IMG/VR virus record: IMGVR_UViG_3300009107_000034
Span: 1-20,097 of that record
Direction: 5' to 3' (one strand)
DNA from: a virus
Length of the DNA stretch: 20,097 bases
Made by a program: the position numbers and the translations under genes. Below are positions 1,576-18,238 of this stretch, piece after piece. Position 1 is the stretch's first letter, and every line of letters begins with the position of its first letter. A model generated the notes under the pieces. It saw only the letters and a program-made list of their open reading frames with translations, made no database searches and was not told the DNA's origin.

Positions 1576-4500
1576 ATGCCCACCCTTAATGAACTCATAG
1601 CTCAGCAGAGCAACATTAATGAGAACTCAGACCAATGGGACTATGACGTCGAATCCATAGACAAGTCGAAAGTGCTGTCTGACCCTCGAGTCCTGGCGGA
1701 CATGCGGAGATTATTCGAAGTAGAGGGCGGCAAGTTCGATTCAGATGAGGACATGGTCAACTACTGGTATCGGCTCCAATCCGGTGGTGACACAAATCTT
1801 CTGCTCGCTGGACGCCTGTTAGCAGAAGCATCAAACGATGACCAGGAGATGAAGCGCATCAAGTCCCGCCTTGCTCGCGTCCGTCAGCACATGCCTGGAC
1901 CTGGCGAGGAAGGACACCCAGGGTGGTGGGAATGGACGCGCGGATATGTCGGCAATGCCTTGTGGGACATCACGAACTTCGGGGGCATTGGCTTAGCAGC
2001 AAAAGGCATACGTGGCGCAGCGCTTGCGGGCAAGATAGCCAAGGGGAAAACAGCAACTTCCGCGATTGGCAAGAAACGAATGGCGCAAGTGGGCGCCCTC
2101 GAAGCCGGAATCTCTGGTGGCCAAGAAGCAGCGCTCAATACCATGGGCCAACTCCGCGATATAGAGATCGGCGTCCAAGATGAATTCGATTATGGAGAAC
2201 TCGGGCTTGCCACGGGATTCGGGGTGCTCATCGGCGGTGTAATTGGCGGCGCAATCTCAGGCGGAGCCACTTGGTTCGTTGGCACTCGCGCACTGAGCAA
2301 CATCCAAAAACTCAGATCCGCTGGCTGGCGAGACGAAGACATTGCGCAGCTCGGTGAGCAGCAATTCAAAGAAGCCTGGCAGCAAAGCCTCCCCGCCCCC
2401 CATATCGAAAGAACAGTCCCCGGTGACACCATCGGGATGTTTAACGACCCGAGCATGTTCGAAGACGGAGTCCCCAGTGGACGACCGCTTACTGAAGAAG
2501 AAGTTGAGAACCTCGACAGGGCTCCGCACTATGGCTCAGACACCATGTCTGAAGAAGAGCTCGCGTTAGGCGCCGGAATTGAACCAACCCGCTCACCGGA
2601 TTCGGGCCTCGATGCGGAAGAGCGTCTCCTGGCTGAGCAGCGAAGACAGGTAGAAGAAGAACTTGTAGATCTTCGCTTATCGGCAGAGGGGTCAGGACCA
2701 GAGTCCACTCTTTGGGATCAAATTCAGGAAGCTGCTACTCGCCTGTCAAATATTAGAAAACTTCAAAACTGGAAAGCCAGGATTCTTCGAGAGCAGGCTG
2801 AAATTGATGCAATGCTCGCATCAAACGATCCCAAAAGAATTGAGATCGGCCGCATTCGCACAATCGACAACGCAAAGACGCGAGCAGAATACGAAACATT
2901 ACTCAGACGAGTCGCGCTAGACCCATCCGAGCTTGATCAATTAGACCAAACTTTAGACCAGCCTTCTTTTCTTCAGTCTGCGGAAACATCGTGGGGAGCT
3001 GACAATCTAAATGCCGGTCAAGTTATTGACCCCGCCGGGCCGCCAAAACCACCCGAGCAAGTTGGCCCGCCGAAGCCGTCTGAGCCGGAACCCAGCTCAG
3101 ACGCCGCTGCTATTGGTGCCAGAGGAGAGCCGCTTCCCGACACCGCTCCCACCACCGACGCCACCCCCACCGCCGACACCGCTCCCACCACCGGTGACAC
3201 CGCCACCACCACCGCCGATGCGGAACCGGCTCAGACGAAGGGGCGTCCTAAGAAACTTAAAGATACCCACAGACAATACCTGCTCGAAAACAACATCGTT
3301 ACCGAACAGCAGTTAGAAAAGACGCGACCCCAACGTCTGGCCTATAAGCTGGCTCAGCACGCTGGCCTTGGAGTAAAACGACCAGACGGATCCAATAAGA
3401 CAACAGAAGAAATCCTGGCGGAATTCGATGAGTGGAAAACGAAGGCCGACGAAGACGCTGCGTCAGTAGAGGCTAACGAGACACCCGTCGGTGAAACTGC
3501 GGCAAGCAGTGCCCCCAAGTCTGCTGAAGACGCACTGGTAGCGCTTTCCACAGAAATGATATTGGCTAACCCTGATTCGTTCTTGGATCGAACCATTGTG
3601 TTCAACAGGATCGAGCAAAACGGCCTGCCCAAAGATGTGCAGGACGCTATGAAAGATCAGTGGCTCACTATCATGAACCAGGAGCCAAAGTCTCATCATT
3701 TCCTAGAAGGCCTTAATGACGAAGATGCCAAGTGGATCAATAGAGAAGTCGGCAAGCGCTGGAAACAGATAGAACAAAACGCTACACCGATGCTCATGGC
3801 CAACCCAGCCATGAAAGAGATGTACGGTTCAGTCGATGGATTTCTCAAAGCAGCTCGCGTCCGCTTGGAGCAACAGGTTCGCGCCGACTATCTCGAAGGA
3901 AAGATCGGCCCGCGCAAACGTAAGAAGAGCGCAACTCAAACAGCAATAGACAAGGTTGAAGGATCGCTTGGCCCACGCACGGACGAACAAAAAACTTCTG
4001 CGGAAATTATTGCAGAAAATTTGCGGATCGCTCGCGAAGCCAAAGCACAAAGAGATCTCGAGCGCGCGGTCCCGCAGGAAGCCGCCCCAGACGAAGGAAC
4101 AAAGACCACAGCCCGACTTACTGGCGAAGCACAGGAACGCGGTATTCAGGGCGAAACTGAAGCGCGAGCCTATGCTGATTTAACTGGCACCAAATCTCCC
4201 ATCAAATTCAGGGCCACAGGCACCGAACGCCTGTCTGACACCAAACGCGTCGATACCGAGAATGTCGATGCGCGCAGACAGAGAGAAGAGGCAATAGAAG
4301 ATGCCAAGTCCCGAGCGGACAAGGGAGATGCCCAGGCAACAGAAGAACTGCTTGAGCTACAAAAGATGGGCGAACGTGTATTCAAACCAGCGTTCGCTAA
4401 AAAGGGCCAGGAAGCCTGGTACGACCCCACCACTGGCCGTGTCTTCTCCAACCGAAACAACATCAACGTCGCAAATAAGATCGCAGAGGACGTTGATCTT

Positions 4501-7500
4501 GGCCCCAAGGTAACGCCTGACGCGGCGCATAATGCTGCTGCGGAGCGCCGCCGCGTAACCCTGGCCGAAGCAATCAAGAACATCAAAGCAAAGATTGATC
4601 GGAATGCGCTACTAACAGAGAAAGAAGCAGTTGCGTATCCAGAAATGCAAGATGAACTTGCACGTCTGGAGGCGCGTCTTGGCCCCAAACAAGAGAAGTC
4701 CCCAGACAAAACTCCAGAACAGGTAGACGACGCCGAACTGATATATGACGAGGACGGACTTGAGAGCGCGGTAACTCCAGACGAAGCTGGCGCCACCGTT
4801 GTTCAGACGGGTCGCAGACAGGTCACGAACGAAGACGGCGATGTAGAGATTCTCGACTCCGTTGCCAGGACTCCAGAAGAGCACACCGTAGCAATCACTA
4901 GAGCATTCCAAGACTACCAGGAAAGTGGAAACCCCCAGACGTTGCAAGATGCAATTAAACGCATCAACGAGGAATTCGCACTCGAGGGGACGAGCATCGC
5001 GATTCCAGAACCTTCTGTACAACCTGGAGTTCGCAAGGGTGATCGTGTTGTTGCAATCGTCAAACGTGATAGCGACTTGTCTGAGAGAAAAAGTAAACGG
5101 GTTATTTCCCAGAACCAGATTGCTGCTGGCAAGGGTTATCGGGACTTGCTCGGTAACGCGAAAGAAGAGGACTGGATCGTTGGATCAGTACCCCGTGGAA
5201 TAAGCGCGTCTGACCCCAACTTCGCTAAGCACTTCGTCCCAGATACACCAGACGATGCCCCCGCCATCGCAAAAATTCCAGAAGGCCAGCCGGGATCTGA
5301 TCAGACGTCAATCGACACGTTTGCTGCTCAAACCTTTGAGCTGTTCTCAACCCCGAAAACTGGCGGCCGTGTTGTCACCGGCCCCTTCAGTGACATATAC
5401 GAAAAAATCCTTCAGGTTGGAACGAAGTATTCAGAATATTTTGATAACGCCGCATATAAAGACGGCCGAATCGTAATCACTGGCTCAAACCTCGACAGAG
5501 TAATTTTAGACCTGGGCCACGGTTTCCCAGAATCAAAGAAAGGAGGCTTCGCCAAAACGATCGATGAGCATCGGGATCGAGTGACAATGCTTGAGACCAT
5601 GCTTGAAGTGCGTCGCCAACTCGCCCCCAACGGGATAAGAAGGCAGGACGAAGATCTTACCCAGGCAACAGACCGCTTAGTCAACAACATCTTCAGCGAG
5701 TCTGACGAAGCAACCAAGACAGTTGCGCGAAGTGTTTTGCAGAAACTGTCAATCGCTTACAAGTTGTCCCCAAGTGGCGCGCCGGGCCGCGCCCCAATTA
5801 TTCAGGCTAACCAAGACGGTGGGTTTGGTTTCGCCCATGGTAAGAACACCATTGAAGTTGGCGACTTAGGAAACGGATACGCACCGAACGCTGGCCGCCT
5901 GATTCACGAAGTCGGTCACTGGGCATGGGACAACATCCTCACAGATGCAGACAAGATTGAATATCTGCAAATGTTCAATCGTTACTACAATGAAGACGGA
6001 TCGCTGAATCTCGCCGCCCTTGAAGGCAGAACGATTGACAATGCGCTTATCCGAACCAATGCACTTGAAGGCCCAGGGGAATTCTTCGCAAGTCAGTTAG
6101 AACGCTGGGCCACTCAGAACGTCTACCGCAATGAAATCGGTAATGAAACATTCTGGGTAAGAATGGTCAACTACATGAAAGCCATCTTTGACAGGTACAT
6201 GGATGGCCGAAGAATTGATCCAGAGATGGAGCGATTGTTCAAGAAGATTCTTCCTGCAAATGAGGCACGCGCCGCAGCACTTCGCGGTCCCACCACTAGA
6301 GCAGGTACACGGGCGGGCCAGGCGATTATGAATCGGGCATGGGCGCTCGACGATATTATGGAACGACTCGAGGGCTCACTCGAGGGCGAAGATATCGAGC
6401 AATCCCTCTTCGTCCCAGTAGAGTTGATGCACTACCTCTACTCCATTGGCGGTGGTGCAGACGGTAAGAACCCACTTAACGCTGTTGCGCCAATCAAGTC
6501 TGAAATTGCAAGAGCATCACGGGAACTCAAAGACGCGCTCAATATTCCAGAAGGTATCAATTTCGATAGATCGATCGAAGTCCTAAGCGACATTGATCCA
6601 TCTTCTATGGAGTTTGTAAGAAGGACTGAACTCGTCCGCAGGCTCCTCGATGAAGGCATTGTCGCAGAACAGCCAAATGTGCCCATGCGCCCCATTCGAG
6701 ACATTGTCGAAGACATCAGACAACGTCTTGCCAAGAAGTTTTACAACACAGAAGGCGAGCACTACCGGACAGACAACATGCCGCCTTCCGTCAAGAAATA
6801 CGCATACAAAAATGCAAACGGAGATTACCGAGCCCCCGGACGCAAGGGCGGCGGTCGTGGCCGGAAGTATGCAGCAGCGGCCAAACAACGAGAGAAGCGC
6901 AAGGAGCGCGTGGCCAAGGATCTCGAGAAGGCGCAGAACATGGTGGCCAAAGACAATGGCGCGCCTCCCGTCAACTCCCCAAGCCTGAAGACACTCTCAG
7001 ACGACGAACTTCTCACGCTTTGGGAACAGCACTCAACCGGCAAATTTGGCAAGCAAATCGCCAATGAGTACGGAGCTCGTGTTGCAGCCCGCCCCCTTCC
7101 AGTGGATCCAGTCGAGATACCAAACGAGGTGTTCGAAATGAACACCAAAGATCTTCTCGTTGCTGGCCGAGATGCTTGGCGAGCAGGTGATTCTGGACGA
7201 CTGCACCAAGTCTTGTACGAGTATGGTCGCCGCGCTCACAACAAGAACAACCCGGACAATAAGATCCAGGCGGTGCGCAGCAAGCACGTCATAGACATTA
7301 TGACTCGCGAACTTGCGGACACCGTTGGCGATGAGGCAAACGATGGCATCCCCGCAAGCGCCAGGGCAAATGTTCGAGAAATTCTCACTCAGTTCAGCAA
7401 CCGTAACCCAGCCAGGCAAGTAGCTGAAAGACGGATCATGTACCGCCTTCTTGCGTTGGCCGGACGAACTCAACCGGGACCGGAGCACGAGAATCTCGTC

Positions 7501-10500
7501 ACCAACGGTGACATCTACCGCTTGGCTGATTTTACGGGAGCAGAACGACCAAAACCCCGGCACCCGGATTCTGTATTTACTGATTTTGGAGACCCAGAAT
7601 TCCAGTCCCTCAGACGATCTATCAGAGAAATAGTTGTCGGGTTGCAGGGGTCGAACAAAGTTGCGAAGGGGCGTGGCCACGTTAAATCGATAACCGATAC
7701 TTTAGGCCACGTTATCCACTCTGGCATTCTCTCTGAAGAAGATGTTACTGCCGTGATGAAGGCCTACAGGCCAATCAGCAGGACGGACGACATGCTCCGT
7801 CAAAAACAAAATTACAACGCGACAGGCCAGTTGGCTAAATTTGAGCGCCGGACTTACGCTGACGAGGAACGTGACGATGCTCTGCACTGGTTTGCTTTTG
7901 ACACCGCGCGCCTTTTAAATAATTCTGGATCCCAGATATCTGACCCGCATTTAGTCAACATACAAGACAGGACCATTGAGGGTCTGGCTTACGTGCTCAA
8001 TGGTCAAATCAAAAGCAAAGAGCTAAAAGCTAAATTCCCAATGCTGGACGCATTCGGCGATATGTTCGCCCCGTTGCGTGTCGGAGGTAAGCATCCACTA
8101 CTTGATACCCTTGGCAGACGCACGGCAATTCCCCAGGAATATTCCGTTGAATACGTCGGTCAGCTTTTGGAATCAATGACCCCACAGCGGTTTGATGCGG
8201 TCATGTCATTCGTTGGGCGCGGCATAGGAAGAGCGAGCGACTCATCGCCCGTAGTCTTTTGGCACGGCACAGCCAGCGGACCGATCGAGGCCACCCCCGA
8301 ATTTAAAGTAAACATGTCTGATTCCGGCTCTGTCTGGGGGCCGGGCTTCTATGTCACTTATGGCGAGAACGCCAGGAAGGCTGCGACTTTTTACGCCAGC
8401 GGTGCTGTTTCCAGCCGTAGCTACGAATTCCGCATCAGAGACGCATTGGAGAAAGGCGCCCTGACCGACAAGGAAGCGGAAGAAATGCTCGGTGTCGCGC
8501 TCGATCTGCTCGATGCCCGAAATGTTATCCGGCACAACAATGCCCTGCTTCGCCGAATCGAGCAGGAGATCACCTACGAAGATCCCAGCATGACGTTTGA
8601 GGATCTCAACAAGAATTCACGAATCGCCAGAAGCATTCGTGAATCTAAAGAATACATGCGGGTCGCTGGCGATGTCGAACGCTTCGCGCAAGACATGCTC
8701 CGCGAACACGGCATTGGCGATGACCCCCACATGATCCCGATGGTTGCCCACATTAACCATCCAGTTGACTTCAGAGATGCTCGGTCTTACGACATGAACA
8801 GCCCCCTGATTAGAGAAATTGTAGAACTTGGATCAACGATGGGTGTGCTTGATTCATTCGCGCTGCGCCGAATTGACGCCAACTTCAGCCGACCACTAAA
8901 CGGAAGCGACACATACAAAGCGCTTGTCGACGCATTTCACGCCAATCAAAACTCGCTTGGCAAGAGACACGCAAAAGAACTTCTGGCCAAGTTCCTGAAA
9001 GATGAGCTTGGCTACGATGGGATGACATACACGCACGGTTTTGTTGACCATAATGGGGATGAAACTCTGTTTGATGGGGCTGTGGTTTGGGATCAGAGCC
9101 AGGTCAAAGCGCTGACAGCAAAAGAGTTTGACGGCACGTCAGACGTATTCAGCCAGCACGTTATTCAACCGCGAGCTGATGTGGTCGATGGCGTAACCCC
9201 GAACGGCATTTTGATGTCCGCACACATCGCAGACGCCCGCGCAAGAAACAATGCGATGAACTTCTCTGCAATCGGTAACTCCCTGGAAGAAGGAGGCACA
9301 TCGCCCCGTCTGGTCGATACGATGCGGAATATGCTTAAGGGCAAGAAAGCCACCGACTCTGATATACGGGAGGTGCGGAAAGTTGCTCGCGGCTTGCAGC
9401 TCAGAACCAACTCCAGTCGGATCCGCGCTTGGGGCGGCAATTGGTTTGCTGACTGGGTGGCCCCAGTCGAAGGCACCGGATACTATGAAAGTCACCACAT
9501 CATGCTCGCTGGCAAGATCATGCCAATCATCAAGCGCTTGAACGACGCAACTTCTGGCCACAATGTCAAAGGCGCAATGAAGAGATGGATGTCGAAATCC
9601 AATCCGCTATCCAAGAATATGACGGCGGAAGAAGAAAAAATTGCGAAGGCGCTCAGACGGGCTCCGGGGAATAAATACGAGAAGTCGTTGACCCCCGCTG
9701 GTCGAGAAACACTAGCAATGATTCGCGGTATGTTCGCCGACGAGATAAATGAAATGGAGAAGGCCGGAATCATTACTGGCCGAATCGAAAACTACTTCCC
9801 CCAGATTTGGAGCACAGAGAAGATCCGTAGAAACATGGATGACTTCAGACGGGGGATGGCCAGGTATTTTGTCCACGAAGCTCAGGACCGTGGAGAGACA
9901 TTATCAATGTCTGATGCGCTACACCGAGCTGATGGAATGACTGAGACGCTCCTGCTTGAAGACGGCATCAATCTCCCCCCCGCTGGCGGTGGAAGTCGGG
10001 ACAAGGTAACTGACCACATCGACTACCAGAGGCTGATCCGTCTGGATCAGTACCCCGAGATGGTTGATGCGCTCGAGCCCTTCCTCGAAAACAATCTGCG
10101 CGACGTGCTCGTCAAGTACCTTGATGGCACAACATCCAGGCTGCTGTTCCACAACAAGTTTGGCGTCAAGAACCACGGCTTCTACGCATACAAGAAAGTC
10201 ATCCAAGAAGGCGAAGAAGGAATCATTGATCTTCTCGTTTCTGACTCAATCAAGATGCGTCCCATTAAGGGAAGAGTCGGGGGCGAGGCTGTCGTAGAGC
10301 ACGCTAACTTCAAGCACCGGGTCATCAACGCACCTTACAGTGCAGAGTCACGAAATGACGCCGCAGTTGCTGTACGTCAAGCAATGGATCTGTACCGCAA
10401 CCGTGGCGCTCTCGCCGCCAAGAAATATCTCGATGATCTGTCTGAAGAGCCGAACCCGGAATGGGGTAAGCGAGTCGATGCGATTGTCGCTGCAATGAAG

Positions 10501-11886
10501 ATTGTTCAGGAAGATCCGGTCATCCATTCTCAGGAACTCGATCACATCGAAATGATGATGAACGCACTTCAGCGTAAACCCATCGATGGTGGCAGCCGGT
10601 TCTTTGAGCCCCAACATAACTTATCGAAGAAGGCGCGCAACTTCACCGCAGTCACATTGCTTGGATGGACGGCACTGACGTCTACCACTGACCCGGTGCT
10701 GCCTCTAATCCGTTCGGGATCAATTAAGGCTTGGCTCCGAGGAATGCGTGACTGGGCCAAAAACCCGAACTACCGGGACATGATGCGCGAATCCGGCATA
10801 GCCATCGAGAACCTCGTGCATGAGCGACTGGTTCACCAGTACGGTGTGGACGGATCGAAACTTGCAACATCTTTCTTCAATGCAACGATGCTGACTCCGT
10901 GGACTCAGATGCAACGAGAGTGGGCAGGATTGGTCGGATACAACTGGTTCAAGGCCGAGCAGAAAAATTACTTCCAATACGGCAAAGATAGTCGACGAGG
11001 TAAGAGAGCGTTTCGTGTTTTGAAATCGTACGGCCTCGAGCATCTGATGAAAGATGGCGCCTACCAGCTCGATACACCGAACGATATCGGCTCAGACGAC
11101 GCTCTAAAGATGTCGCTGATTAAATTTGCTAACCAGTCCATCTACGCCCCCAACCCGAACGACATCCCAATGTGGGGTCAAACACCGATCGGGGCTATGG
11201 TGTTCCAGTTAAAGTCATTCCCGATGATGATGGGCCGTATGGTCGGTGGACGTAATGAAACCACGGGGATCATTCAGGAATTCAAAGCCGGGAACAAAAC
11301 CCCCCTGCTCTATTTCGCGGCGATTGCCCCGTGGTTTGGTGCCGGATCACTGGCAGCCAAGGATTACGCGCAATTCCGTGGTGGCGATACCGAACGCGAG
11401 TCAGCCCTTCGAGAGCGATCTCTTAACAAGTCACTCGACTCGATCGGCTTGGAAGAATTAGCAGAGACGCTCGGCTATGATCCGCGCCTCCATCCAGACA
11501 TGGACGCATGGCTCGGCAACTACGTTGAAGGCTTCGGGCATCTGGGTGGCTTGTCGTTACTCGGTGAGTTGATGCACAGCGCTGCTGCCAACGCAGACAA
11601 CGGGCAGTACGGCGTGAACAGAATCATGTCGGCACTCCTTGGCCCCAGCTTCAGTCACACACAAGGAGCGATTGAAGTATTCCAGGGCGCTCACTCGATG
11701 ATAAGGGGCGACGAAGCACCGGGGAAACGCAGGGCAGCGGCCAGACAAGTTGCCAGTCGCATCCCGATTCTTGGTGGAATCCGGGCGTTTAGGGAAGGTG
11801 TTGTGGATTCAGTCGCAGGAGAAGCGACTGCTCGGAAAAGCAAATCAAGTGGAAGTTGGGGATCTGGCTGGGGATCTAGCTGGTAA
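1576..11886 (+). CDS. Giant polyvalent / internal virion protein with zincin and ADP-ribosyltransferase-like domains
   Basis: A single uninterrupted 3436-residue frame starts at ATG with GGAG ten bases upstream. Seen in order: a helical N-terminus; glycine-rich hydrophobic segments at about 135-157 and 209-236; a Pro/Thr/Ala-rich linker at about 485-555 followed by GRPKK at 556; long charged helical stretches; HEVGH at 1444-1448 with a possible third ligand in GEFFA (E1502), a gluzincin-like arrangement; a very basic helical patch at about 1745-1795; an ADP-ribosyltransferase-like region from FWHGT (H2230) through GPGFY (Y2259) to DQSQVK (Q2509); then helical regions with YFPQIW (2740) and VFQLKSF (3209-3215); and a Trp/Gly/Ser tail (3422-3436). 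These domains match the 'polyvalent protein' architecture described for phages and conjugative elements (MPTase-PolyVal and ART-PolyVal types). The expected role is to be packaged, ejected with DNA, and to process itself and modify host targets early. No RNA polymerase motif set is evident. Domain calls rest on motifs, not searches. Confidence 0.85.
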   Translation: MPTLNELIAQQSNINENSDQWDYDVESIDKSKVLSDPRVLADMRRLFEVEGGKFDSDEDMVNYWYRLQSGGDTNLLLAGRLLAEASNDDQEMKRIKSRLARVRQHMPGPGEEGHPGWWEWTRGYVGNALWDITNFGGIGLAAKGIRGAALAGKIAKGKTATSAIGKKRMAQVGALEAGISGGQEAALNTMGQLRDIEIGVQDEFDYGELGLATGFGVLIGGVIGGAISGGATWFVGTRALSNIQKLRSAGWRDEDIAQLGEQQFKEAWQQSLPAPHIERTVPGDTIGMFNDPSMFEDGVPSGRPLTEEEVENLDRAPHYGSDTMSEEELALGAGIEPTRSPDSGLDAEERLLAEQRRQVEEELVDLRLSAEGSGPESTLWDQIQEAATRLSNIRKLQNWKARILREQAEIDAMLASNDPKRIEIGRIRTIDNAKTRAEYETLLRRVALDPSELDQLDQTLDQPSFLQSAETSWGADNLNAGQVIDPAGPPKPPEQVGPPKPSEPEPSSDAAAIGARGEPLPDTAPTTDATPTADTAPTTGDTATTTADAEPAQTKGRPKKLKDTHRQYLLENNIVTEQQLEKTRPQRLAYKLAQHAGLGVKRPDGSNKTTEEILAEFDEWKTKADEDAASVEANETPVGETAASSAPKSAEDALVALSTEMILANPDSFLDRTIVFNRIEQNGLPKDVQDAMKDQWLTIMNQEPKSHHFLEGLNDEDAKWINREVGKRWKQIEQNATPMLMANPAMKEMYGSVDGFLKAARVRLEQQVRADYLEGKIGPRKRKKSATQTAIDKVEGSLGPRTDEQKTSAEIIAENLRIAREAKAQRDLERAVPQEAAPDEGTKTTARLTGEAQERGIQGETEARAYADLTGTKSPIKFRATGTERLSDTKRVDTENVDARRQREEAIEDAKSRADKGDAQATEELLELQKMGERVFKPAFAKKGQEAWYDPTTGRVFSNRNNINVANKIAEDVDLGPKVTPDAAHNAAAERRRVTLAEAIKNIKAKIDRNALLTEKEAVAYPEMQDELARLEARLGPKQEKSPDKTPEQVDDAELIYDEDGLESAVTPDEAGATVVQTGRRQVTNEDGDVEILDSVARTPEEHTVAITRAFQDYQESGNPQTLQDAIKRINEEFALEGTSIAIPEPSVQPGVRKGDRVVAIVKRDSDLSERKSKRVISQNQIAAGKGYRDLLGNAKEEDWIVGSVPRGISASDPNFAKHFVPDTPDDAPAIAKIPEGQPGSDQTSIDTFAAQTFELFSTPKTGGRVVTGPFSDIYEKILQVGTKYSEYFDNAAYKDGRIVITGSNLDRVILDLGHGFPESKKGGFAKTIDEHRDRVTMLETMLEVRRQLAPNGIRRQDEDLTQATDRLVNNIFSESDEATKTVARSVLQKLSIAYKLSPSGAPGRAPIIQANQDGGFGFAHGKNTIEVGDLGNGYAPNAGRLIHEVGHWAWDNILTDADKIEYLQMFNRYYNEDGSLNLAALEGRTIDNALIRTNALEGPGEFFASQLERWATQNVYRNEIGNETFWVRMVNYMKAIFDRYMDGRRIDPEMERLFKKILPANEARAAALRGPTTRAGTRAGQAIMNRAWALDDIMERLEGSLEGEDIEQSLFVPVELMHYLYSIGGGADGKNPLNAVAPIKSEIARASRELKDALNIPEGINFDRSIEVLSDIDPSSMEFVRRTELVRRLLDEGIVAEQPNVPMRPIRDIVEDIRQRLAKKFYNTEGEHYRTDNMPPSVKKYAYKNANGDYRAPGRKGGGRGRKYAAAAKQREKRKERVAKDLEKAQNMVAKDNGAPPVNSPSLKTLSDDELLTLWEQHSTGKFGKQIANEYGARVAARPLPVDPVEIPNEVFEMNTKDLLVAGRDAWRAGDSGRLHQVLYEYGRRAHNKNNPDNKIQAVRSKHVIDIMTRELADTVGDEANDGIPASARANVREILTQFSNRNPARQVAERRIMYRLLALAGRTQPGPEHENLVTNGDIYRLADFTGAERPKPRHPDSVFTDFGDPEFQSLRRSIREIVVGLQGSNKVAKGRGHVKSITDTLGHVIHSGILSEEDVTAVMKAYRPISRTDDMLRQKQNYNATGQLAKFERRTYADEERDDALHWFAFDTARLLNNSGSQISDPHLVNIQDRTIEGLAYVLNGQIKSKELKAKFPMLDAFGDMFAPLRVGGKHPLLDTLGRRTAIPQEYSVEYVGQLLESMTPQRFDAVMSFVGRGIGRASDSSPVVFWHGTASGPIEATPEFKVNMSDSGSVWGPGFYVTYGENARKAATFYASGAVSSRSYEFRIRDALEKGALTDKEAEEMLGVALDLLDARNVIRHNNALLRRIEQEITYEDPSMTFEDLNKNSRIARSIRESKEYMRVAGDVERFAQDMLREHGIGDDPHMIPMVAHINHPVDFRDARSYDMNSPLIREIVELGSTMGVLDSFALRRIDANFSRPLNGSDTYKALVDAFHANQNSLGKRHAKELLAKFLKDELGYDGMTYTHGFVDHNGDETLFDGAVVWDQSQVKALTAKEFDGTSDVFSQHVIQPRADVVDGVTPNGILMSAHIADARARNNAMNFSAIGNSLEEGGTSPRLVDTMRNMLKGKKATDSDIREVRKVARGLQLRTNSSRIRAWGGNWFADWVAPVEGTGYYESHHIMLAGKIMPIIKRLNDATSGHNVKGAMKRWMSKSNPLSKNMTAEEEKIAKALRRAPGNKYEKSLTPAGRETLAMIRGMFADEINEMEKAGIITGRIENYFPQIWSTEKIRRNMDDFRRGMARYFVHEAQDRGETLSMSDALHRADGMTETLLLEDGINLPPAGGGSRDKVTDHIDYQRLIRLDQYPEMVDALEPFLENNLRDVLVKYLDGTTSRLLFHNKFGVKNHGFYAYKKVIQEGEEGIIDLLVSDSIKMRPIKGRVGGEAVVEHANFKHRVINAPYSAESRNDAAVAVRQAMDLYRNRGALAAKKYLDDLSEEPNPEWGKRVDAIVAAMKIVQEDPVIHSQELDHIEMMMNALQRKPIDGGSRFFEPQHNLSKKARNFTAVTLLGWTALTSTTDPVLPLIRSGSIKAWLRGMRDWAKNPNYRDMMRESGIAIENLVHERLVHQYGVDGSKLATSFFNATMLTPWTQMQREWAGLVGYNWFKAEQKNYFQYGKDSRRGKRAFRVLKSYGLEHLMKDGAYQLDTPNDIGSDDALKMSLIKFANQSIYAPNPNDIPMWGQTPIGAMVFQLKSFPMMMGRMVGGRNETTGIIQEFKAGNKTPLLYFAAIAPWFGAGSLAAKDYAQFRGGDTERESALRERSLNKSLDSIGLEELAETLGYDPRLHPDMDAWLGNYVEGFGHLGGLSLLGELMHSAAANADNGQYGVNRIMSALLGPSFSHTQGAIEVFQGAHSMIRGDEAPGKRRAAARQVASRIPILGGIRAFREGVVDSVAGEATARKSKSSGSWGSGWGSSW
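3137..3193 (+). repeat. Direct repeat in the Pro/Thr/Ala linker of the giant gene
   Basis: A 21-base unit beginning ccgacaccgctccc occurs at 3137-3157 and again at 3173-3193, 36 bases apart, inside a longer run of accgcc-like triplets up to about 3225. It encodes repeated DTAPTT-like peptides in a low-complexity interdomain linker (about residues 520-550). Such repeats can change in copy number by slippage without breaking the frame. Confidence 0.7.
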
Positions 11887-12130
11887 TCTCGTCTGAGCCC
11901 ATCTCTTCCCTGAGCTCTATCGTAAGACGAGCTGACAGAAACGCCGGGGTGCCCTGCCCCATCCACGCTCCTATGACGTTGAACTCAAAGTATTCGATCG
12001 CTTCTTCGAAGGCCATGCCATCGGCTTCAAGCAGTTCAATACACTTCTCTTCGTCCAGCAAGATAAACGTGTCTGAGAATCGGCGGACAACGCCGATGAC
12101 TGCGGACTCAAACCCATCAGGCACTAGCAT
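11876..12130 (-). CDS. Conserved small phage protein, function unknown
   Basis: 84 residues beginning MLVPDGFESAVIGVVRR. I chose ATG 12130 because GGGAG lies ten bases upstream. The longer ATG at 12160 has its AGGAG only one base away, which is too close. The protein contains a CIELLEADGMAFEEAIEYFEFNVIG core that resembles a small acidic family I associate with phage replication regions; no function is established. It is the last gene of the minus-strand recombination operon. It overlaps the previous gene's end by 14 bases and runs 11 bases into the convergent 3' end of the giant gene, with no intrinsic terminator evident between them. Confidence 0.7.
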   Translation of the reverse strand: MLVPDGFESAVIGVVRRFSDTFILLDEEKCIELLEADGMAFEEAIEYFEFNVIGAWMGQGTPAFLSARLTIELREEMGSDEITS

Positions 12131-12314
12131 TCGTGTTGTGCTCCCGTAGCCAGTCTGCATACTCCTCTAACGTCAGCCCAAATTTCTTGTCGAACCACCT
12201 GGCCCAACTAATGCCGGAGGGCGTTCGTTCGAACCGTCTTTTCCAGGCGTATCTCGCAGCATGGTGCCGTAACTGTAGTTGATCCTGTTGATATTTCTGT
12301 TTATCGAAGGCCAC
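12117..12314 (-). CDS. Small basic hypothetical protein
   Basis: About 65 residues, rich in Arg, Lys, Gln, Tyr and Trp (HHAARYAWKRRFERTPSG, then WARWFDKKFGLTLEEYADWLREH). I recognise no domain. The start is uncertain: there is no ATG in frame at the beginning. GTG 12314 and TTG 12326 both lie inside the end of the preceding gene, and neither has a clear Shine-Dalgarno site. Translation may depend on coupling to the upstream gene, whose TAA is at 12301. The frame is kept as a gene because it fills the operon with no gap and its composition is protein-like. A small nucleic-acid-binding role is possible from charge but unsupported. Confidence 0.55.
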   Translation of the reverse strand: MAFDKQKYQQDQLQLRHHAARYAWKRRFERTPSGISWARWFDKKFGLTLEEYADWLREHNTNASA

Positions 12315-12603
12315 ACTTAGCAACAATCAGTGCCCAGGCTTCACGCGCCGGGGCTTCTCTTATATCTGCATCTGCTTTCAAGTCAGCAAGTTGGTTCTCC
12401 AACTCTTCTTTATGTTTGAGCAAGTGTCTGACCTTGTCCTGCGCCTTCTTCACCTGACCTTCGTTGTCTCCGAACATAAGCCATTGCAATCTGGCGCGAA
12501 CACTGCTGATTTCGATGTCAATCTTGTTCAACTGTTTCTTCTTATCCCTGTAGGCAATAACGGCTGTCTGCCATTTATCGATCAATTCTTCTGTGTTTTT
12601 CAT
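12301..12603 (-). CDS. Coiled-coil hypothetical protein
   Basis: 100 residues from ATG 12603. The start forms an ATGA overlap with the stop of the nuclease gene and has TTGGAG seven bases upstream, so it is clearly coupled. A longer TTG start at 12642 is unnecessary. Nearly the whole chain is charged heptad-like helix (KKKQLNKIDIEISSVRARL, then VKKAQDKVRHLLKHKEELENQLADLKA), predicting a coiled-coil dimer or an accessory subunit. I see no catalytic motif. Position directly behind the nuclease suggests a partner of the recombination enzymes, which is inference only. Confidence 0.7.
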   Translation of the reverse strand: MKNTEELIDKWQTAVIAYRDKKKQLNKIDIEISSVRARLQWLMFGDNEGQVKKAQDKVRHLLKHKEELENQLADLKADADIREAPAREAWALIVAKCGLR

Positions 12604-13418
12604 TCGAGCTCCAAGGGGTAGTAAGCGTTGTACTGTCCGCAAGTTGCTTCAGCAGGTTCATCGTGAAGTAAGCACCACCATTTTTTAAAATGGTTTGGCT
12701 TGTCCACGGGCACTGCATTTTCGCAGGTAACGCAGGTCTTAGGAATATCCGCCTCAGACGGATTCCAGCATACCTGCTGCCTGAAACACATTCGACATCT
12801 CCAATCGTCTGACGATCTCGAGATCTTCCTTGCCTGGTTGCGCATCACGACTTCGATGCGATGCTGCATATTCGAAAAAACGAATGGGTCAAAGTCGATG
12901 TACTCCGCATGGTACTCGGACGTGTTCTTGTTATATGCGATGAAAAACGATCGCTCGAAATTTCCCAGCCCCATCATCAACTGGCACTGAGCCACGTATT
13001 TGGGGTGACTCTTTGCGACCCCATGCTTCTTAAACTTCTTCCAATTAGAGTCATTCATGCTTTTGACTTCTAACAAAAGCAGCTCTTCATCAATGACGAC
13101 TCGACCATCCATGTGAGCACGAACGTGGCCACCGTGATCGGTTAATTCATATTGCCGTCCAGTGATGTTGTCTTTCTCAAAAACATCCAGACCTGCTGTC
13201 TTCATGTCGGCAACGACAATGTCTTCAATCTTGTGCCCAAGCAAAAAGATTCGCTTAAGTTTCGGGCTTATCGGATCTTCTGGGAAGCCTCGCAACGAGT
13301 ACGCCAGATATGCCTCACACTCATTTCCAATAATCGAAGCGCCAATATATTGGCGAGGGGCTGACTCCTGATGTCGATCCCAGGCATTGAAATTTTCGAG
13401 AATGTCTTTGATCAACAT
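12600..13418 (-). CDS. Cas4/AddB-like PD-(D/E)XK nuclease with Fe-S-type cysteines
   Basis: 272 residues. Nuclease motifs are visible in order: GHKIED (H62, E65), HMDGRV (D104), LEVKS (E117, K119) and KYVAQCQ (Q144), the usual layout of RecB-family exonucleases. An early cysteine (C34 in NECEAY) plus C208-x2-C211-x5-C217 matches the four-cysteine iron-sulfur arrangement of Cas4 and AddB. A further set C229-x2-C232, C249 and C260 (with H252) looks like an additional metal-binding C-terminal module. In phages such enzymes resect DNA ends for single-strand annealing recombination, which fits the adjacent DUF669-like and RecA-like genes. ATG 13418 sits directly on the U-tract of an intrinsic terminator and has no Shine-Dalgarno site of its own, so expression probably needs read-through and re-initiation. 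It is not next to any CRISPR array. Confidence 0.85.
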   Translation of the reverse strand: MLIKDILENFNAWDRHQESAPRQYIGASIIGNECEAYLAYSLRGFPEDPISPKLKRIFLLGHKIEDIVVADMKTAGLDVFEKDNITGRQYELTDHGGHVRAHMDGRVVIDEELLLLEVKSMNDSNWKKFKKHGVAKSHPKYVAQCQLMMGLGNFERSFFIAYNKNTSEYHAEYIDFDPFVFSNMQHRIEVVMRNQARKISRSSDDWRCRMCFRQQVCWNPSEADIPKTCVTCENAVPVDKPNHFKKWWCLLHDEPAEATCGQYNAYYPLELE

Positions 13419-13447
13419 AAAAAAAGGGGGGCGGTTTCCCGCCCCCC
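13419..13447 (-). terminator. Intrinsic terminator between ssDNA-binding and nuclease genes
   Basis: On the minus strand a perfect 9-bp stem GGGGGGCGG / CCGCCCCCC closes on a GAAA tetraloop (GNRA type) and is followed by seven T residues. It begins five bases after the stop of the DUF669-like gene. The T-run ends exactly at the ATG of the nuclease gene. It should end most transcripts and leave the downstream genes to read-through. Confidence 0.9.
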
Positions 13448-13452
13448 AGTGG

Positions 13453-13962
13453 TCAGGCGAAATTCAACTCGTCGTTAAAGAGATGCGAGTCATCATCGGG
13501 TGAGGAGGAGGCACCCGAAGATGTGGGAGGCACCGCACCATTCGCCTGATAGTATGTCTTCACCTCGCGCTTAGGCCCATACACATTGCCTGTTCGGGGA
13601 TCTTTGCGTTCCTTGCTCATCCCGACCGACACACCAACACGCAATCCAGACAGTGTCGATATATCTCCGGGCTTATTGGGGTTGTCGTGACCCCCGAACT
13701 CGAGGATGGCCTTCAGTTTTTCCCGGCCAATTTTTTGAGCGATATCGCTTTCATTCTGGATGTTCAGCCAGTCGGTGATGGTGCCAGATCCACCTTCATC
13801 TCGGAACTCAACCTTCAGTTGTCGCCCCCGACCGCTCTTGGTCTTCACGATTTCGGCGTTAATCACCGAACAGTTGTAGTTGCCGGGTTCGAGGATCGCA
13901 CTACCACCACGAACATCAACATTACCCAAATCTAAATCCGCAAAGCCTGTCCACTCACTCAT
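13453..13962 (-). CDS. DUF669-like single-stranded DNA-binding protein
   Basis: 169 residues from ATG 13962, in an ATGA overlap with the preceding ATPase gene and with AGGAG eight bases upstream. The chain has the pattern of the phage DUF669 family: a start with LEPGNYNCSVINAEIVKTKSG, then LKVEFRDEGGSGTITDWLNIQN, then IGREKLKAILEFGG and LSGLRVGVSVG. It ends in a Ser/Pro-rich linker and an acidic tail (DDDSHLFNDELNF), typical of SSB-type proteins that recruit partners through the C-terminus. The expected role is to coat ssDNA during replication and annealing. It lies between the Sak4-like ATPase and the nuclease, a common phage order. A strong terminator follows directly, so it is probably made in greater amount than the genes behind it. 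Confidence 0.8.
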   Translation of the reverse strand: MSEWTGFADLDLGNVDVRGGSAILEPGNYNCSVINAEIVKTKSGRGRQLKVEFRDEGGSGTITDWLNIQNESDIAQKIGREKLKAILEFGGHDNPNKPGDISTLSGLRVGVSVGMSKERKDPRTGNVYGPKREVKTYYQANGAVPPTSSGASSSPDDDSHLFNDELNFA

Positions 13963-14777
13963 GATTTCTTCTCCTGTTTCTGTTTCTGCGCCTCAGCTTT
14001 GGCGCGTTTTGCCGTCTCAACCCACTTCCCATATTCGTTGTCGTCCATAGACATACGATCGAACAGGGATATGATGTTGTCGCACCGCTCAACTGGCCGA
14101 AGCCGATTGCGCGGATCGCGAACTTTTCCGTGCCACCCCTTTACTTCTTCAGTGATGATGAAGCGCTCGATATGCACATGCGGTGGGTCGCCCGTCGTTC
14201 GGCGAATCCCGCACAACACATGATCGAATAGCGCTGGCACCTGCTTTGCCACCTTCTTTGATTTGAGCAGTGGCCAGTAATGCGTCTGGTCATTGTCGTC
14301 TTGCTCTTCAGCAGCAAGCGCAGTGATATAAATGTGCATGGGCAGATCACGCACATACTTCATGGCTCCAATAATTTGGGTACTGTGCGCCCCGTACTTC
14401 TCGAAACCGTTGCTGCCAAATTCTTCTTCGGCCCACGCCATACATCGATCAGACAGTTCGGTAAGACTATCAATACAGAGCCACTTGTACTTCTGTTTTT
14501 TGAAGTCGGGGGTATTCATCATCTTGATAATCCCCTTGAATGAATAGATCCCCTGCTCAGGATCGTTGACCCCGTCCCACGACGAGAAGTCCAGGTAGTC
14601 GATGCCACAGTCCTCGATCGACTTAAGCCCCGCTTCACCACTAATGATGAACCCCGGCCCCAATGACTCTTGAAGGTATCGGCATTGATAAGTCTTGCCG
14701 AACCCATGATGCGCCACTAACAATGTCTTGCTTGCTGACGCCACAGAACCGTCATTCGCTTTCTTCGGTTTGAACAT
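13959..14777 (-). CDS. Sak4-like RecA-fold ATPase (phage recombinase/annealing mediator)
   Basis: 272 residues from ATG 14777 with GGAGG five bases upstream. The Walker A loop reads AHHGFGKT (22-29); K28 and T29 are present, but the first conserved Gly is Ala. Walker B is in KWLCIDS (D103), followed by a LTELSDR helix and IYITALAAEEQDD, a sensor-like strand. The C-terminus is a Lys/Gln/Glu tail. Size and motif order fit the AAA_24/Sak4 family of short RecA-like phage ATPases, which work with an SSB and a nuclease in single-strand annealing. It overlaps the preceding gene by 26 bases and the following one by ATGA. A distant RecA-like repair ATPase would look similar. Confidence 0.82.
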   Translation of the reverse strand: MFKPKKANDGSVASASKTLLVAHHGFGKTYQCRYLQESLGPGFIISGEAGLKSIEDCGIDYLDFSSWDGVNDPEQGIYSFKGIIKMMNTPDFKKQKYKWLCIDSLTELSDRCMAWAEEEFGSNGFEKYGAHSTQIIGAMKYVRDLPMHIYITALAAEEQDDNDQTHYWPLLKSKKVAKQVPALFDHVLCGIRRTTGDPPHVHIERFIITEEVKGWHGKVRDPRNRLRPVERCDNIISLFDRMSMDDNEYGKWVETAKRAKAEAQKQKQEKKS

Positions 14778-15281: not shown

Positions 15282-15524
15282 ATGAAACGACAAAAATTCA
15301 ACGTGGCCAGATTAGTCAAAGACATGGGGGGGGCAAGCGCCGTGGCGAATCTGCTCGGCACCCCCCGGACCGCCCCGTACCGTTGGATAAGGCATCGTTA
15401 TGTCTCGAGTCGAATGCTGGAAGCTCTGAAGTGGCATCACCCAGACTTAAAAATCGACGAATACTTTGAGGACTACGACAACGATGACAACGATGACAAC
15501 GAGCACAACCCAAACCTGCACTAA
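15282..15524 (+). CDS. Cro-like HTH transcriptional regulator
   Basis: 80 residues from ATG 15282 with GGAG seven bases upstream. Residues ~5-45 form a compact helix-turn-helix: VARLVKDMGG, then SAVANLLGTPRTAPYRWI, with a basic recognition region (RWIRHRY). The end is a very acidic repeat (DYDNDDNDDNE). Size and layout are those of phage Cro/CI-type repressors lacking a dimerisation domain. It sits between two divergent modules and beside a 20-bp near-palindrome, so control of both the recombination operon and the PrimPol-helicase is likely (inference). The 3' end overlaps the PrimPol gene by 41 bases, within a 9-bp tandem repeat. No integrase or CI-type peptidase domain is seen here, so this alone does not show a temperate lifestyle. 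Confidence 0.75.
   Translation: MKRQKFNVARLVKDMGGASAVANLLGTPRTAPYRWIRHRYVSSRMLEALKWHHPDLKIDEYFEDYDNDDNDDNEHNPNLH
15477..15503 (+). repeat. 9-bp tandem repeat spanning repressor end and PrimPol start
   Basis: Three tandem units of gacaacgat (the last is gacaacgag) lie where the repressor and PrimPol genes overlap. One frame gives the Asp/Asn tail of the repressor. The other gives Thr/Met, so the first two units each supply an ATG (15484, 15493) that can start the PrimPol. Confidence 0.85.
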
Positions 15525-17394
15525 CACACTCGACTCAGCGCTTGAATATCTTGAACGGGGATGGTCAATCATCCCCGTTCGCGTTTCTGGGCAGGGGAAG
15601 AAGATCCCTCACATCAAATGGAAGGAGTTTCAGACAAGACAAGCAACCCCGGAAGAAGTCGAATCCTGGTTTACCCAGTGGCCAGATACAGGCATCGCCC
15701 TTGTGACAGGCGCGATATCCGGTATCTATATAGTTGATTGCGACACTATCGAGGCACAACGAGAAGCTGATCGAATCGGCCTGCAAACCTTCATCAAGAC
15801 CCGCACCCAACGGGGCAAGGAAGGCTGTCACCTGTACTTCGAGCATCCGGGCGACGGCAAGTTGCGGGGTAACAAGGTAGGCGTCAACGCTGACGGGGTC
15901 TCTTGGCCCAAGATAGACGGACTCGATTTCCGGGGCGACGGTGGCTATGCCCTGCTCCCCCCATCCAAGGGGTATGAGTGGGACATTCCAGTGGGCATTA
16001 GCCCAGACGATATGGCTATCTGGACAGACCCCCAGATCACGGCCAGCGTGGTGGACATCAACACGCGGGAAGAATTCGACCTATCCAGCCTCGATCTGTC
16101 GTCAGTTTCAGCTAGGAACCACATCCCAGAGTGGGACAAGACATATCAGTTTGTCAGGGATAAGTTCCCCACCACCCTGAAGATCCCTTCGGGCTGCGGT
16201 AACGGTCGCAATGATCGTGTGATGAGACACATCAGCGACTCAATTATTCGGGGCTTTTGGGGCGACGAGCTGCGCGCGAAGGGCCGGTCATTCATGCGGG
16301 AGTTCTTCGAAGAGCCTCTCCCCGAACCAGAATTCCTCGCGACAGTCGCCTCGATGGAAGCCGCTGAGCGCCGTAATCACCCCGAGCGCCTAGAGAAACA
16401 CGAGAAGCCTGCACAACCCTCGTCTGACATCGTGTTACTCACGGAGAACGATGCTGATCGCCTGATCGGGGAAGCCTCGAGCCGTGCCTATATCGTTGAG
16501 CCATGGCTCTGGCCCGAATCAATCACCCAAATCCACGGCTATTCCGGGTCGGGAAAGTCGATGTTCCTACAACACATCTTATATGCCGCCGCCACTGGCC
16601 AAGACCGCTTCGGCCCCTACCTCCTTGGCAGACGGGCTCGAGTTCTATATCTCGATTTTGAAATGGGGCGAGGCACAATCGGATCCCGGCTCAAAACACT
16701 GGAAGGAATGTATGGGCCAAGTGAGGGGTACTACCAGGTCTGGGCGCCCTTCTCAGACGAGGACATGGACTTGAAAAAACCGGGGGGTTTGAGCCGCCTG
16801 GATACGGTCATCAAAGCAGCCAACCCTGAGATTGTCGTTATTGATACCAATCGCTCTGCCTTCGTGGGCCTGGAAGAGAACAGCGCTGAGGGCTGGTCGT
16901 ACGTCAACAGAGTGCTTCTCAGACTGCGGGACATGGGGCTGGCAGTTATCTCGGTACACCACAGCAACAAGCCGGGTGAGTCAGGCCTTGGTCGGGAAGC
17001 CGGATCGACCGGCCAACTTGCGATTCTCGACACCCAGATCAGGGTCGCGCAGGTCTATGAAGACGAGACAACAGCCAAGCAAAATGCGGGGATCTGGGAT
17101 GCGTCGTACAGCACGCCTGTATTCCCCGCTATGAGCCGTTCGCTGTCTGAGGACTTCGATCTACAGATGGTGATGGAACTGCGTTACAGGAAGGTACGGG
17201 AGTGGACAGAGCACCATGAGTGGGGCCAATGGGTTGGGTTTGGGGTGAACCATCAGGACGAAAGCCGGATGGTGGTGGGTAGCCGAAGCCCCCGACAGAA
17301 GGCTCAGGCGTTGGCGAGTCAGGGCACACCCTTGAAAGAGATCGCAAAGACCCTCCATAAACCGCTCAAAGCAGTTAAGGAGTGGGTCGGATGA
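15484..17394 (+). CDS. Primase-polymerase / RecA-like helicase fusion
   Basis: 636 residues if read from ATG 15484 (GAGG about 12 bases upstream); ATG 15493 is equally possible, and TTG 15466 is less likely. The N-terminal ~200 residues have the bifunctional primase-polymerase signature: IVDCD (D85, D87), GCHLYF (H116) and GLDFRGDGGYALLPPS. A linker (~230-330) follows. The helicase has Walker A GYSGSGKS (352-359), Walker B VVIDT (D454) and SVHHSNK (H492, H493), as in AAA_25/RepA-type hexameric helicases. The last ~30 residues (ASQGTPLKEIAKTLHKPLKAVKEW) look like a helix-turn-helix. The protein should unwind DNA and make primers for phage replication; such fusions are common in phages and plasmids. 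It ends in an ATGA overlap with the next gene. No separate DNA polymerase is in the window. Confidence 0.88.
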   Translation: MTTMTTSTTQTCTNTLDSALEYLERGWSIIPVRVSGQGKKIPHIKWKEFQTRQATPEEVESWFTQWPDTGIALVTGAISGIYIVDCDTIEAQREADRIGLQTFIKTRTQRGKEGCHLYFEHPGDGKLRGNKVGVNADGVSWPKIDGLDFRGDGGYALLPPSKGYEWDIPVGISPDDMAIWTDPQITASVVDINTREEFDLSSLDLSSVSARNHIPEWDKTYQFVRDKFPTTLKIPSGCGNGRNDRVMRHISDSIIRGFWGDELRAKGRSFMREFFEEPLPEPEFLATVASMEAAERRNHPERLEKHEKPAQPSSDIVLLTENDADRLIGEASSRAYIVEPWLWPESITQIHGYSGSGKSMFLQHILYAAATGQDRFGPYLLGRRARVLYLDFEMGRGTIGSRLKTLEGMYGPSEGYYQVWAPFSDEDMDLKKPGGLSRLDTVIKAANPEIVVIDTNRSAFVGLEENSAEGWSYVNRVLLRLRDMGLAVISVHHSNKPGESGLGREAGSTGQLAILDTQIRVAQVYEDETTAKQNAGIWDASYSTPVFPAMSRSLSEDFDLQMVMELRYRKVREWTEHHEWGQWVGFGVNHQDESRMVVGSRSPRQKAQALASQGTPLKEIAKTLHKPLKAVKEWVG

Positions 17395-17597: not shown

Positions 17598-17617
17598 GTG
17601 TTCCGTACGAAGCATTC

Positions 17618-17687: not shown

Positions 17688-17691
17688 AAAT

Positions 17692-18194: not shown

Positions 18195-18197
18195 CCT

Positions 18198-18230: not shown

Positions 18231-18238
18231 TTGCGCCC

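What the first reader, a model, noticed from the sequence alone, without database searches (positions are those of the whole stretch)
1576..11886. 3436-residue virion-type protein carrying both a zinc-protease motif and an ADP-ribosyltransferase-like domain
One gene takes half the window and joins glycine-rich membrane-active segments, HEVGH (1444) with a possible third ligand E1502, a basic patch, and an H-Y-Q type ADP-ribosyltransferase signature (H2230, Y2259, Q2509). Polyvalent proteins of this kind are known. The exact combination, and long regions between domains with no recognisable motif (about 560-1380, 1800-2220, 2520-3200), leave room for undescribed domains. The order suggests ejection, self-cleavage by the zincin, and release of an effector that modifies a host protein or nucleic acid.
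Basis: partly seen in the sequence, partly recalled or inferred. Interest (0 to 1): 0.7.

Follow-up and report, generated by a model that had tools for sequence, protein, structure and literature searches.

The report
Giant phage injection protein carrying enzymes
A 3436-residue protein of a marine virus of bacteria looks like an injection-machine core protein fused to a protein-cutting domain and a protein-modifying domain, and comparison with relatives shows the relic of a second protein-cutting site.

Summary
The ORF is real. It belongs to a family of CRP-810-type marine phages, usually one frame of about 3,000-3,900 codons. The zincin call holds: HEVGH1444 plus E1502, with the expected sheet and two helices in the model. 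The ART call holds at family level (ART-PolyVal, PF18760), but the triad is H2230-Y2259-D2481; Q2509 is Q in only 25 of 70 members. The 'empty' regions are not all empty. Residues 2600-3436 model like the T7 gp16 ejectosome core (three best PDB matches, Z about 10; suggestive for a helical model). Residues 1900-2195 are a decayed second HExxH domain, intact in 30 of 70 members. Of 70 non-redundant members 24 keep both metal sites, 40 only the first, 6 only the second, none neither; the ART triad is intact in 47. So a protease site looks indispensable and the ART accessory, but site changes on the tree are few (1 and 6). Best reading: a virion-packaged ejection protein that delivers a zincin and an ADP-ribosyltransferase. 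Packaging, self-cleavage and ART activity are untested. The kind (polyvalent proteins) is known; this is a new member with a corrected active site and an either-or protease pattern.

The parts
1576..11886 (+). gene for the 3436-residue ejection-type polyvalent protein
   Evidence: ORF of 3,000 codons or more in 34 of 80 loci of the first family scan; covers gp36, gp35 and gp34 of Roseobacter phage CRP-810
1576..2475 (+). N-terminal segment (aa 1-300) with Gly-rich hydrophobic stretches (aa 135-155, 209-229); homologue of CRP-810 gp36 'internal virion protein D'
   Evidence: family profile matches gp36 at E 2e-108; phrog_342 'internal virion protein with endolysin domain' in 5 of 27 members, best 3.3e-7, not in the window itself; hydropathy
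3973..5355 (+). moderately conserved region of unknown function (aa 800-1260)
   Evidence: conservation, alignment A8; no convincing PDB sequence relative
5659..6255 (+). zincin domain 1 (aa 1362-1560)
   Evidence: three strands, HExxH helix and Glu helix in the model; VIA-align Z 7.4, 143 residues, to a zincin metalloprotease structure; Pfam Peptidase_M91 in 4 of 35 members and DUF6782 metallopeptidase in 1, neither in the window
5905..5919 (+). HEVGH, aa 1444-1448
   Evidence: HExxH with the later E in 64 of 70
6079..6081 (+). E1502, third metal ligand
   Evidence: lost in the same 6 rows that lose HExxH
7273..8160 (+). decayed second HExxH domain (aa about 1900-2195); the site reads TDTLG at aa 2040-2044 and H2104 stands at the third-ligand position
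   Evidence: HExxH in 30 of 70 members; column 2104 is E in 30 of 30 of these and in 11 of the 40 others; alignments; profile comparison with zincin 1 P 1.1e-4, probability 56
8161..9150 (+). ART-PolyVal domain (aa 2196-2525) with a helical insertion
   Evidence: PF18760 in 31 of 41 members, best 1.3e-11; window 19.6 bits against a cut-off of 31.2; of six members rescanned one passes the cut-off, two match below it, three do not match; Z 9.9 to a cyanophage A4 pre-ejectosome chain
8263..8265 (+). H2230 of the ART
   Evidence: H in 55 of 70; first strand of this domain in the model
8350..8352 (+). Y2259 of the ART
   Evidence: Y in 58 of 70; second strand
9016..9018 (+). D2481 of the ART (LGYDG), corrected third residue
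   Evidence: D in 60 of 70, E in 8; residue just before the fifth strand; published H-Y-D triad
9373..11883 (+). gp16-like ejectosome core region (aa 2600-3436)
   Evidence: Z 10.5, 10.4 and 10.0 to T7 and PhiM1 core proteins, next row 5.7; phrog_6958 and phrog_684 virion structural proteins in 40 and 39 of 41 members, phrog_342 in 13 of 41

Best explanation
It is the large, gp16-like ejection protein of a CRP-810-type phage. Packed inside the head, it would leave the virion with the DNA, insert its glycine-rich N-terminus and helical C-terminal third into the envelope to help form the channel, and deliver two enzymes: a zincin and an H-Y-D ADP-ribosyltransferase. The zincin most likely acts after ejection, on the protein itself or on its channel partners, freeing the enzyme cassette or dismantling the channel. 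The ART most likely modifies host proteins early in infection. Shown here by computation: the domain anatomy, the conserved residues and the pattern of site loss; strongly suggested: the gp16-like fold. Inferred, partly from what I recall of T7: head location, membrane insertion, cleavage, ADP-ribosylation and its target.
For: The C-terminal model matches T7 and PhiM1 ejectosome core chains above all other rows, and viral internal virion proteins appear in the predicted-structure list below 'large polyvalent protein' entries. PHROG virion families match 39-40 of 41 members. The gene stands where CRP-810 has internal virion protein D and two further ORFs, before a holin and an endolysin. Zincin layout as published. 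HExxH and E1502 are lost together in one clade. At the second site HExxH and the Glu column go together: E in 30 of 30 with HExxH, in 11 of 40 without. None of 70 members lacks both HExxH motifs. ART family match. A cyanophage A4 pre-ejectosome chain is the top row for the ART region, and A-4L ORF27 shows HGT, GSGTY and GVDA in that order.
Against: I saw no virion proteomics for this family. The window's own ART score is below the Pfam cut-off (19.6 against 31.2 bits), and the nearest relative L013 gave no ART match when scanned alone. Foldseek found no PDB match at E 0.001 or better for the 1196-residue middle model, whose pTM is 0.39. The gp16 matches align 246-290 of 877 residues at 5.8-6.0 A, and the tool warns that Z under about 13 may be a common arrangement in helical models. 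N4 vRNAP, which bears a zincin, is packaged unprocessed (PMC5512222, passages). The tree has 1 change of site 1 and 6 of site 2, so the either-or pattern is statistically weak.
Confidence: 0.7

Rival explanations
1. The zincin works before or during packaging: it matures the protein (or the head) inside the assembling virion, as proposed for phage P1 DdrB, and has no role in the host cell.
For: P1 DdrB is processed before packaging and carries an MPTase (PMC5512222, passages). Retention of at least one HExxH site in 70 of 70 fits a host-independent role, whereas the ART triad is altered in 23 of 70.
Against: N4 vRNAP with the same kind of domain is packaged whole. No cleavage data for this family.
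Confidence: 0.3
2. The HExxH domain is an effector protease against a host envelope or defence protein, with the ART as a second effector.
For: Published as one of the possible roles of MPTases in polyvalent proteins (PMC5512222, passages).
Against: An effector role predicts loss and variation like that of the ART; instead a site is kept in 70 of 70.
Confidence: 0.2
3. The HExxH domain binds metal without being a peptidase, and the second HExxH region is not a zincin at all.
For: The N4 vRNAP preprint notes that HExxH also occurs in radical SAM enzymes (PMC12633501, passages). The second region of the window is modelled as helices with hardly any strand, and no Pfam peptidase matches it in 23 members.
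Against: Site 1 has the zincin sheet and the Glu helix, lost together with HExxH. The Glu column of site 2 follows its HExxH, and profile comparison aligns both motifs of the two regions (P 1.1e-4).
Confidence: 0.12
4. The ART fold is only a structural or binding module in the window's lineage, not an active enzyme.
For: H-Y-D is not intact in 23 of 70 members, including the window's neighbour L014 with R at 2230. The window's own Pfam score is low.
Against: The window and its nearest relative L013 both keep H, Y and D.
Confidence: 0.25

Closest known systems
Polyvalent proteins of phages (Iyer et al. 2017, PMC5512222; passages read)
   Same: Very large virion-type protein joining a zincin-like MPTase and an ART with an H-Y-D triad; [quoted passage not shown]
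   Different: The C-terminal third is gp16-like and the second metal site is decayed in the window; no polymerase or lysozyme match was found.
Phage N4 virion RNA polymerase gp50 (PMC12633501, preprint; passages read)
   Same: About 3,500 residues; membrane N-terminus, HExxH domain, large helical C-terminal part.
   Different: No polymerase match here, an ART and a second metal site instead. The C-terminal match to N4 gp50 is weak (Z 3.5, 193 residues).
T7 gp16 / PhiM1 tetrameric ejection protein
   Same: C-terminal fold (Z 10.0-10.5); place among virion genes.
   Different: T7 gp16 has a peptidoglycan-cutting (LTase) domain (PMC11440229, passage; its N-terminal place is recalled); here a zincin and an ART instead.
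CRP-810 gp36, gp35, gp34 (OR671924)
   Same: Same protein family along the length (profile E-values from 2e-108 to 0); zincin, second HExxH and ART motifs all seen in gp35.
   Different: Three ORFs in the record; second HExxH intact there, decayed in the window; N in place of Q2509.
Cyanophage A4 pre-ejectosome chain (PDB 9k3a_B)
   Same: Fold of the ART region (Z 9.9, 175 residues, rmsd 4.1); H, Y, D motifs in A-4L ORF27, which I infer to be this chain.
   Different: No HExxH in ORF27; best profile stretch only 2.6 bits.

Membership tests
ART-PolyVal (PF18760, Tox-ART-HYD2 clade) | Profile match above the curated cut-off | tested here: inconclusive
   Window 19.6 bits against 31.2; 31 of 41 members match at E 0.1 or better; of six rescanned, L049 39.8 bits passes, L035 29.6 and L088 22.6 do not, L039, L072 and L013 give no match
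ART-PolyVal (PF18760, Tox-ART-HYD2 clade) | H in strand 1, Y in strand 2, D in strand 5 | tested here: met
   H2230 and Y2259 in the first and second strands, D2481 just before the fifth; H-Y-D in 47 of 70 members, the window among them
ART-PolyVal (PF18760, Tox-ART-HYD2 clade) | ADP-ribosyltransferase activity | not testable with these tools
   needs a bench assay
zincin-like MPTase of polyvalent proteins | HExxH and a later helix with the third-ligand Glu | tested here: met
   joint loss
[quoted passage not shown]
   helix 49-68, strands 79-82, 89-91, 96-99, helices 109-124 and 171-187 of the model, with two further helices between the last two
zincin-like MPTase of polyvalent proteins | significant match to a known MPTase profile | tested here: inconclusive
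   Peptidase_M91 in 4 of 35 (best 0.001), DUF6782 in 1 (1.4e-5), MPTase-PolyVal in 1 (0.089), none in the window itself
second zincin (aa 1900-2195) | HExxH present in the window | tested here: not met
   TDTLG at the site, H at the third-ligand position; HExxH in 30 of 70 members
T7 gp16-type ejection protein | gp16 core fold | tested here: inconclusive
   three best rows Z 10.5, 10.4, 10.0, next 5.7, but 246-290 of 877 residues and Z under the tool's caution level for helical models; model pLDDT 68.4, pTM 0.70
T7 gp16-type ejection protein | sequence match to internal-virion or virion-structural families | tested here: met
   window: phrog_684 1.3e-10 and phrog_6958 5.2e-10; phrog_342 'internal virion protein with endolysin domain' in 13 of 41 members, best 2.1e-22, not in the window
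T7 gp16-type ejection protein | peptidoglycan-cutting domain | tested here: not met
   no such Pfam match in the whole window protein or in the N-terminal segments of 27 members
T7 gp16-type ejection protein | packaged in the virion | not testable with these tools
   no proteomics at hand
N4-type virion RNA polymerase | single-subunit RNA polymerase domain | tested here: not met
   no polymerase match in Pfam or PHROGs for the window protein

The most novel reading that the evidence does not exclude
The family carries a redundant pair of proteases in its ejection protein: either metal site can decay but never both, because one act of proteolysis (self-cleavage or cutting of the channel) is an obligatory step of genome entry, while the ADP-ribosyltransferase is an optional payload. 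The phage ejectosome would then be a self-processing machine.
Probability: 0.25. Interest if true: 0.65.

Novelty: new member of a known kind. Interest (0 to 1): 0.42.

Why it matters
The 2017 paper that named polyvalent proteins lists several possible jobs for their zincins without a decision (passages). This family offers natural experiments: members with both sites, only the first, or only the second. It also has a cultured phage and host, CRP-810 on FZCC0198 (PMC11288001, abstract), in which the question can be tested. It brings together the gp16-like ejectosome core, the polyvalent zincin and an injected-type ART, and gives domains to gp35 and gp34 of CRP-810, annotated as hypothetical proteins.

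Tried and rejected
H-Y-Q triad: rejected, Q2509 is Q in only 25 of 70. Pfam and PHROGs on the whole protein: almost silent; segments and relatives gave the matches. Sequence search of PDB with zincin 1, second-site, ART, C-terminal, N-terminal and aa 800-1260 profiles: nothing convincing (hits to designed and coiled-coil proteins look like composition). Foldseek of the middle model against PDB: no match at E 0.001 or better. Pfam on the C-terminal part: LPD39 in 1 of 41 at 0.089, otherwise nothing of the kind. Genome contigs: one weak partial relative, L090. tblastn of residues 1-1375 against phages reported no match, although a direct comparison finds CRP-810 gp36 (E 5e-18), so that search missed it. 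CRP-810's three ORFs as natural splitting at domain borders: not pursued, because the gp35/gp34 border is a 31-nt tandem repeat (30 of 31 identical) and the breaks in L046, L135 and L151 fall elsewhere. Association of site-2 loss with loss of H-Y-D (28 of 30 intact with site 2, 19 of 40 without): not supported on the tree (3 independent pairs, median p 1). The cyanophage A4 structure paper was not found in the library. Whether 'two metal sites in a gp16-like protein' is in print was looked for only with the listings and by words in PMC11288001.

Full report
What was checked. The window is a 20,097-base virus record. The whole protein matches almost nothing: Pfam has no real hit, PHROGs one virion structural family at residues 3095-3222 (E 4e-8). 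Of 50,697 phage records two match residues 1376-3436; none was reported for residues 1-1375, although a direct comparison finds CRP-810 gp36 there (E 5e-18).

The nearest named phage. Roseobacter phage CRP-810 (OR671924; PMC11288001, abstract and passages read) has gp36, gp35 and gp34 in the same place, before a small ORF, a holin and an endolysin. Profiles built here match gp36 with the N-terminal part (E 2e-108), gp35 with zincin 1 (1.6e-113), the second site (4e-145) and the ART (4e-133), and gp34 with the C-terminal part (E 0). The main text of the paper mentions ORF36 once, as internal virion protein D, ORF34 and ORF35 not at all, and holds none of the words ADP-ribos, metallo, peptidase, polyvalent or protease; its supplements were not seen.

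Relatives. Four scans of IMG/VR with family alignments found 202, 88, 133 and 205 relatives, overlapping, of which 80, 80 (79 distinct loci), 80 and 80 were returned. From the first two, removing near-copies (92% identity and more over half the length) and ORFs under 600 residues left 61 rows; 11 of these, under 2150 residues, were dropped, leaving 50. The last two added 22 (ORFs of 1400 residues and more). Two of the 72 do not reach the first site and were left out: L266_0, with an intact second HExxH, and L178_0, with a lost one. Counts are of the remaining 70. Genes broken in the contig dropped out by length, except the larger piece of L135. The row labelled as the window is a near-identical contig, 3432 of 3436 residues equal. 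The added rows were fitted to a fixed alignment, so single columns of the variable ART may be misplaced in some.

First metal site. HExxH plus the later Glu is intact in 64 of 70. The six others (L076, L086, L092, L093, L095, L098) lose both parts together and form one clade, which is what a third ligand would do. The model of residues 1330-2525 (pLDDT 77.7, pTM 0.39, 35 sequences) has the zincin order: helix, three strands, HExxH helix and, after two short helices, the Glu helix. In the second-look alignment to PDB chains a zincin metalloprotease scores Z 7.4 over 143 residues, a middling value that alone would prove little. Pfam peptidase models touch a few members only and not the window.

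Second metal site. In CRP-810 and in 30 of 70 members the stretch aligned to window residues 2040-2044 reads HExxH and is followed by a Glu helix. The Glu column (2104) is E in 30 of these 30 and in 11 of the 40 others. In the window the site is gone (TDTLG; H2104 for the Glu). Profile comparison of the two regions aligns both motifs (P 1.1e-4, probability 56). Against it: the window's own model of this region is nearly all helix and no peptidase profile matches it (0 of 23 members), so its zincin nature rests on motifs and profile alone.

Either-or pattern. Of 70, 24 keep both, 40 only the first, 6 only the second, none neither. On a tree of the C-terminal columns (quick method, LG+G4, several long branches) the first site changes once and the second six times; on the tree of 50 rows with a mixture model the counts were 1 and 3. 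As the six rows without the first site are one clade, the absence of 'neither' is suggestive, not proven.

The ART. PF18760 matches 31 of 41 members, best 1.3e-11; the window alone scores 19.6 bits against a cut-off of 31.2. Of six members scanned again, L049 passes with 39.8 bits, L035 (29.6) and L088 (22.6) fall short, and L039, L072 and L013, the window's nearest relative, give no match. The founding paper (PMC5512222, passages) gives the active site as H in strand 1, Y in strand 2 and D in strand 5. In the model H2230 lies in the first strand, Y2259 in the second, and D2481 is the residue before the fifth. D2481 is D in 60 and E in 8 of 70; Q2509 is N in 28, Q in 25, others in 17. H-Y-D is intact in 47 of 70, with 5 changes on the tree; the window has it. 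The best row for the middle model is chain B of the cyanophage A4 pre-ejectosome (Z 9.9, 175 residues, over model residues 866-1186); the next rows (8.4, 8.3) match only the long helices of the insertion. Anabaena phage A-4L ORF27, which I infer to be that chain from its name, size and numbering, carries HGT, GSGTY and GVDA in that order, but profile similarity is slight (best stretch 2.6 bits).

The C-terminal third. The model of residues 2560-3436 (pLDDT 68.4, pTM 0.70, 41 sequences) has T7 core proteins (9jyy_I Z 10.5, 281 residues; 7eyb_I 10.4, 246) and the PhiM1 ejectosome (8vb2_A 10.0, 290) as its three best PDB rows; the fourth is 5.7. The tool warns that helical models may reach such values by a common arrangement, and rmsd is 5.8-6.0; the gap to the rest and the agreement of all three with ejection proteins speak for the match. 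Sequence support: phrog_6958 in 40, phrog_684 in 39 and phrog_342 (internal virion protein with endolysin domain) in 13 of 41 members; the window itself matches the first two. Among predicted viral structures the best rows are 'large polyvalent protein' entries, and internal virion protein D entries recur below.

How it most likely works. An ejection protein of gp16 kind whose middle holds one intact zincin site, the relic of a second, and an H-Y-D ART. The order channel part - enzymes - channel part fits delivery during genome entry. What the zincin cuts is not shown; retention of a site in 70 of 70 argues for a job in the phage's own machinery (self-cleavage or dismantling of the channel) more than for a host target. 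The uneven retention of H-Y-D argues for a host-facing payload. The parallel with N4 vRNAP (membrane N-terminus, HExxH domain, helical C-terminal part; PMC12633501, passages) is in layout, not in membership: no polymerase match is found here.

Verdict. The residues are there, the reading is right in outline and wrong in the third ART residue, and two of the three 'empty' stretches are filled. The kind of protein is known; the either-or protease pattern in a gp16-like protein is the part worth a test.

Noticed in passing
L008:23491-23552 (CRP-810, border of gp35 and gp34): A 31-nt tandem repeat (30 of 31 identical) lies where the reading frame of the big gene breaks in CRP-810; it may be real or an assembly join.
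   Followed up: partly
L135:4261-5771: About 1.5 kb separates two pieces of the big gene in this contig; no Rfam match was found.
   Followed up: partly
window 11876-12642: The longer ORFs after the big gene are on the minus strand, whereas CRP-810 has a small ORF, a holin and an endolysin on the plus strand there.
   Followed up: no
window 17692-18187, minus strand: Two small ORFs side by side with lipobox-like endings of a hydrophobic stretch (FLVGC, FLLSGC), possibly spanin- or exclusion-type lipoproteins (reading only).
   Followed up: no
window 12600-14777 minus strand, 15466-19080 plus strand: Replication and recombination block: Cas4-domain exonuclease, candidate single-strand binding protein, Sak4-like annealing protein, Prim-Pol/AAA protein, RusA-like resolvase, in an order like that of CRP-810.
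   Followed up: no
L009:3183-14762 (MW202828, Manatee Spring podovirus): A 3859-residue protein annotated 'reticulocyte binding/rhoptry protein' matches the zincin 1 profile at E 6.5e-19 and holds two HEFGH motifs; the annotation is probably misleading.
   Followed up: partly
L171, L172, L176, L177, L179, L192: A clade of relatives in which the ART third residue is E (Q in L192) and Y2259 is H in three: an altered active site worth a look.
   Followed up: no
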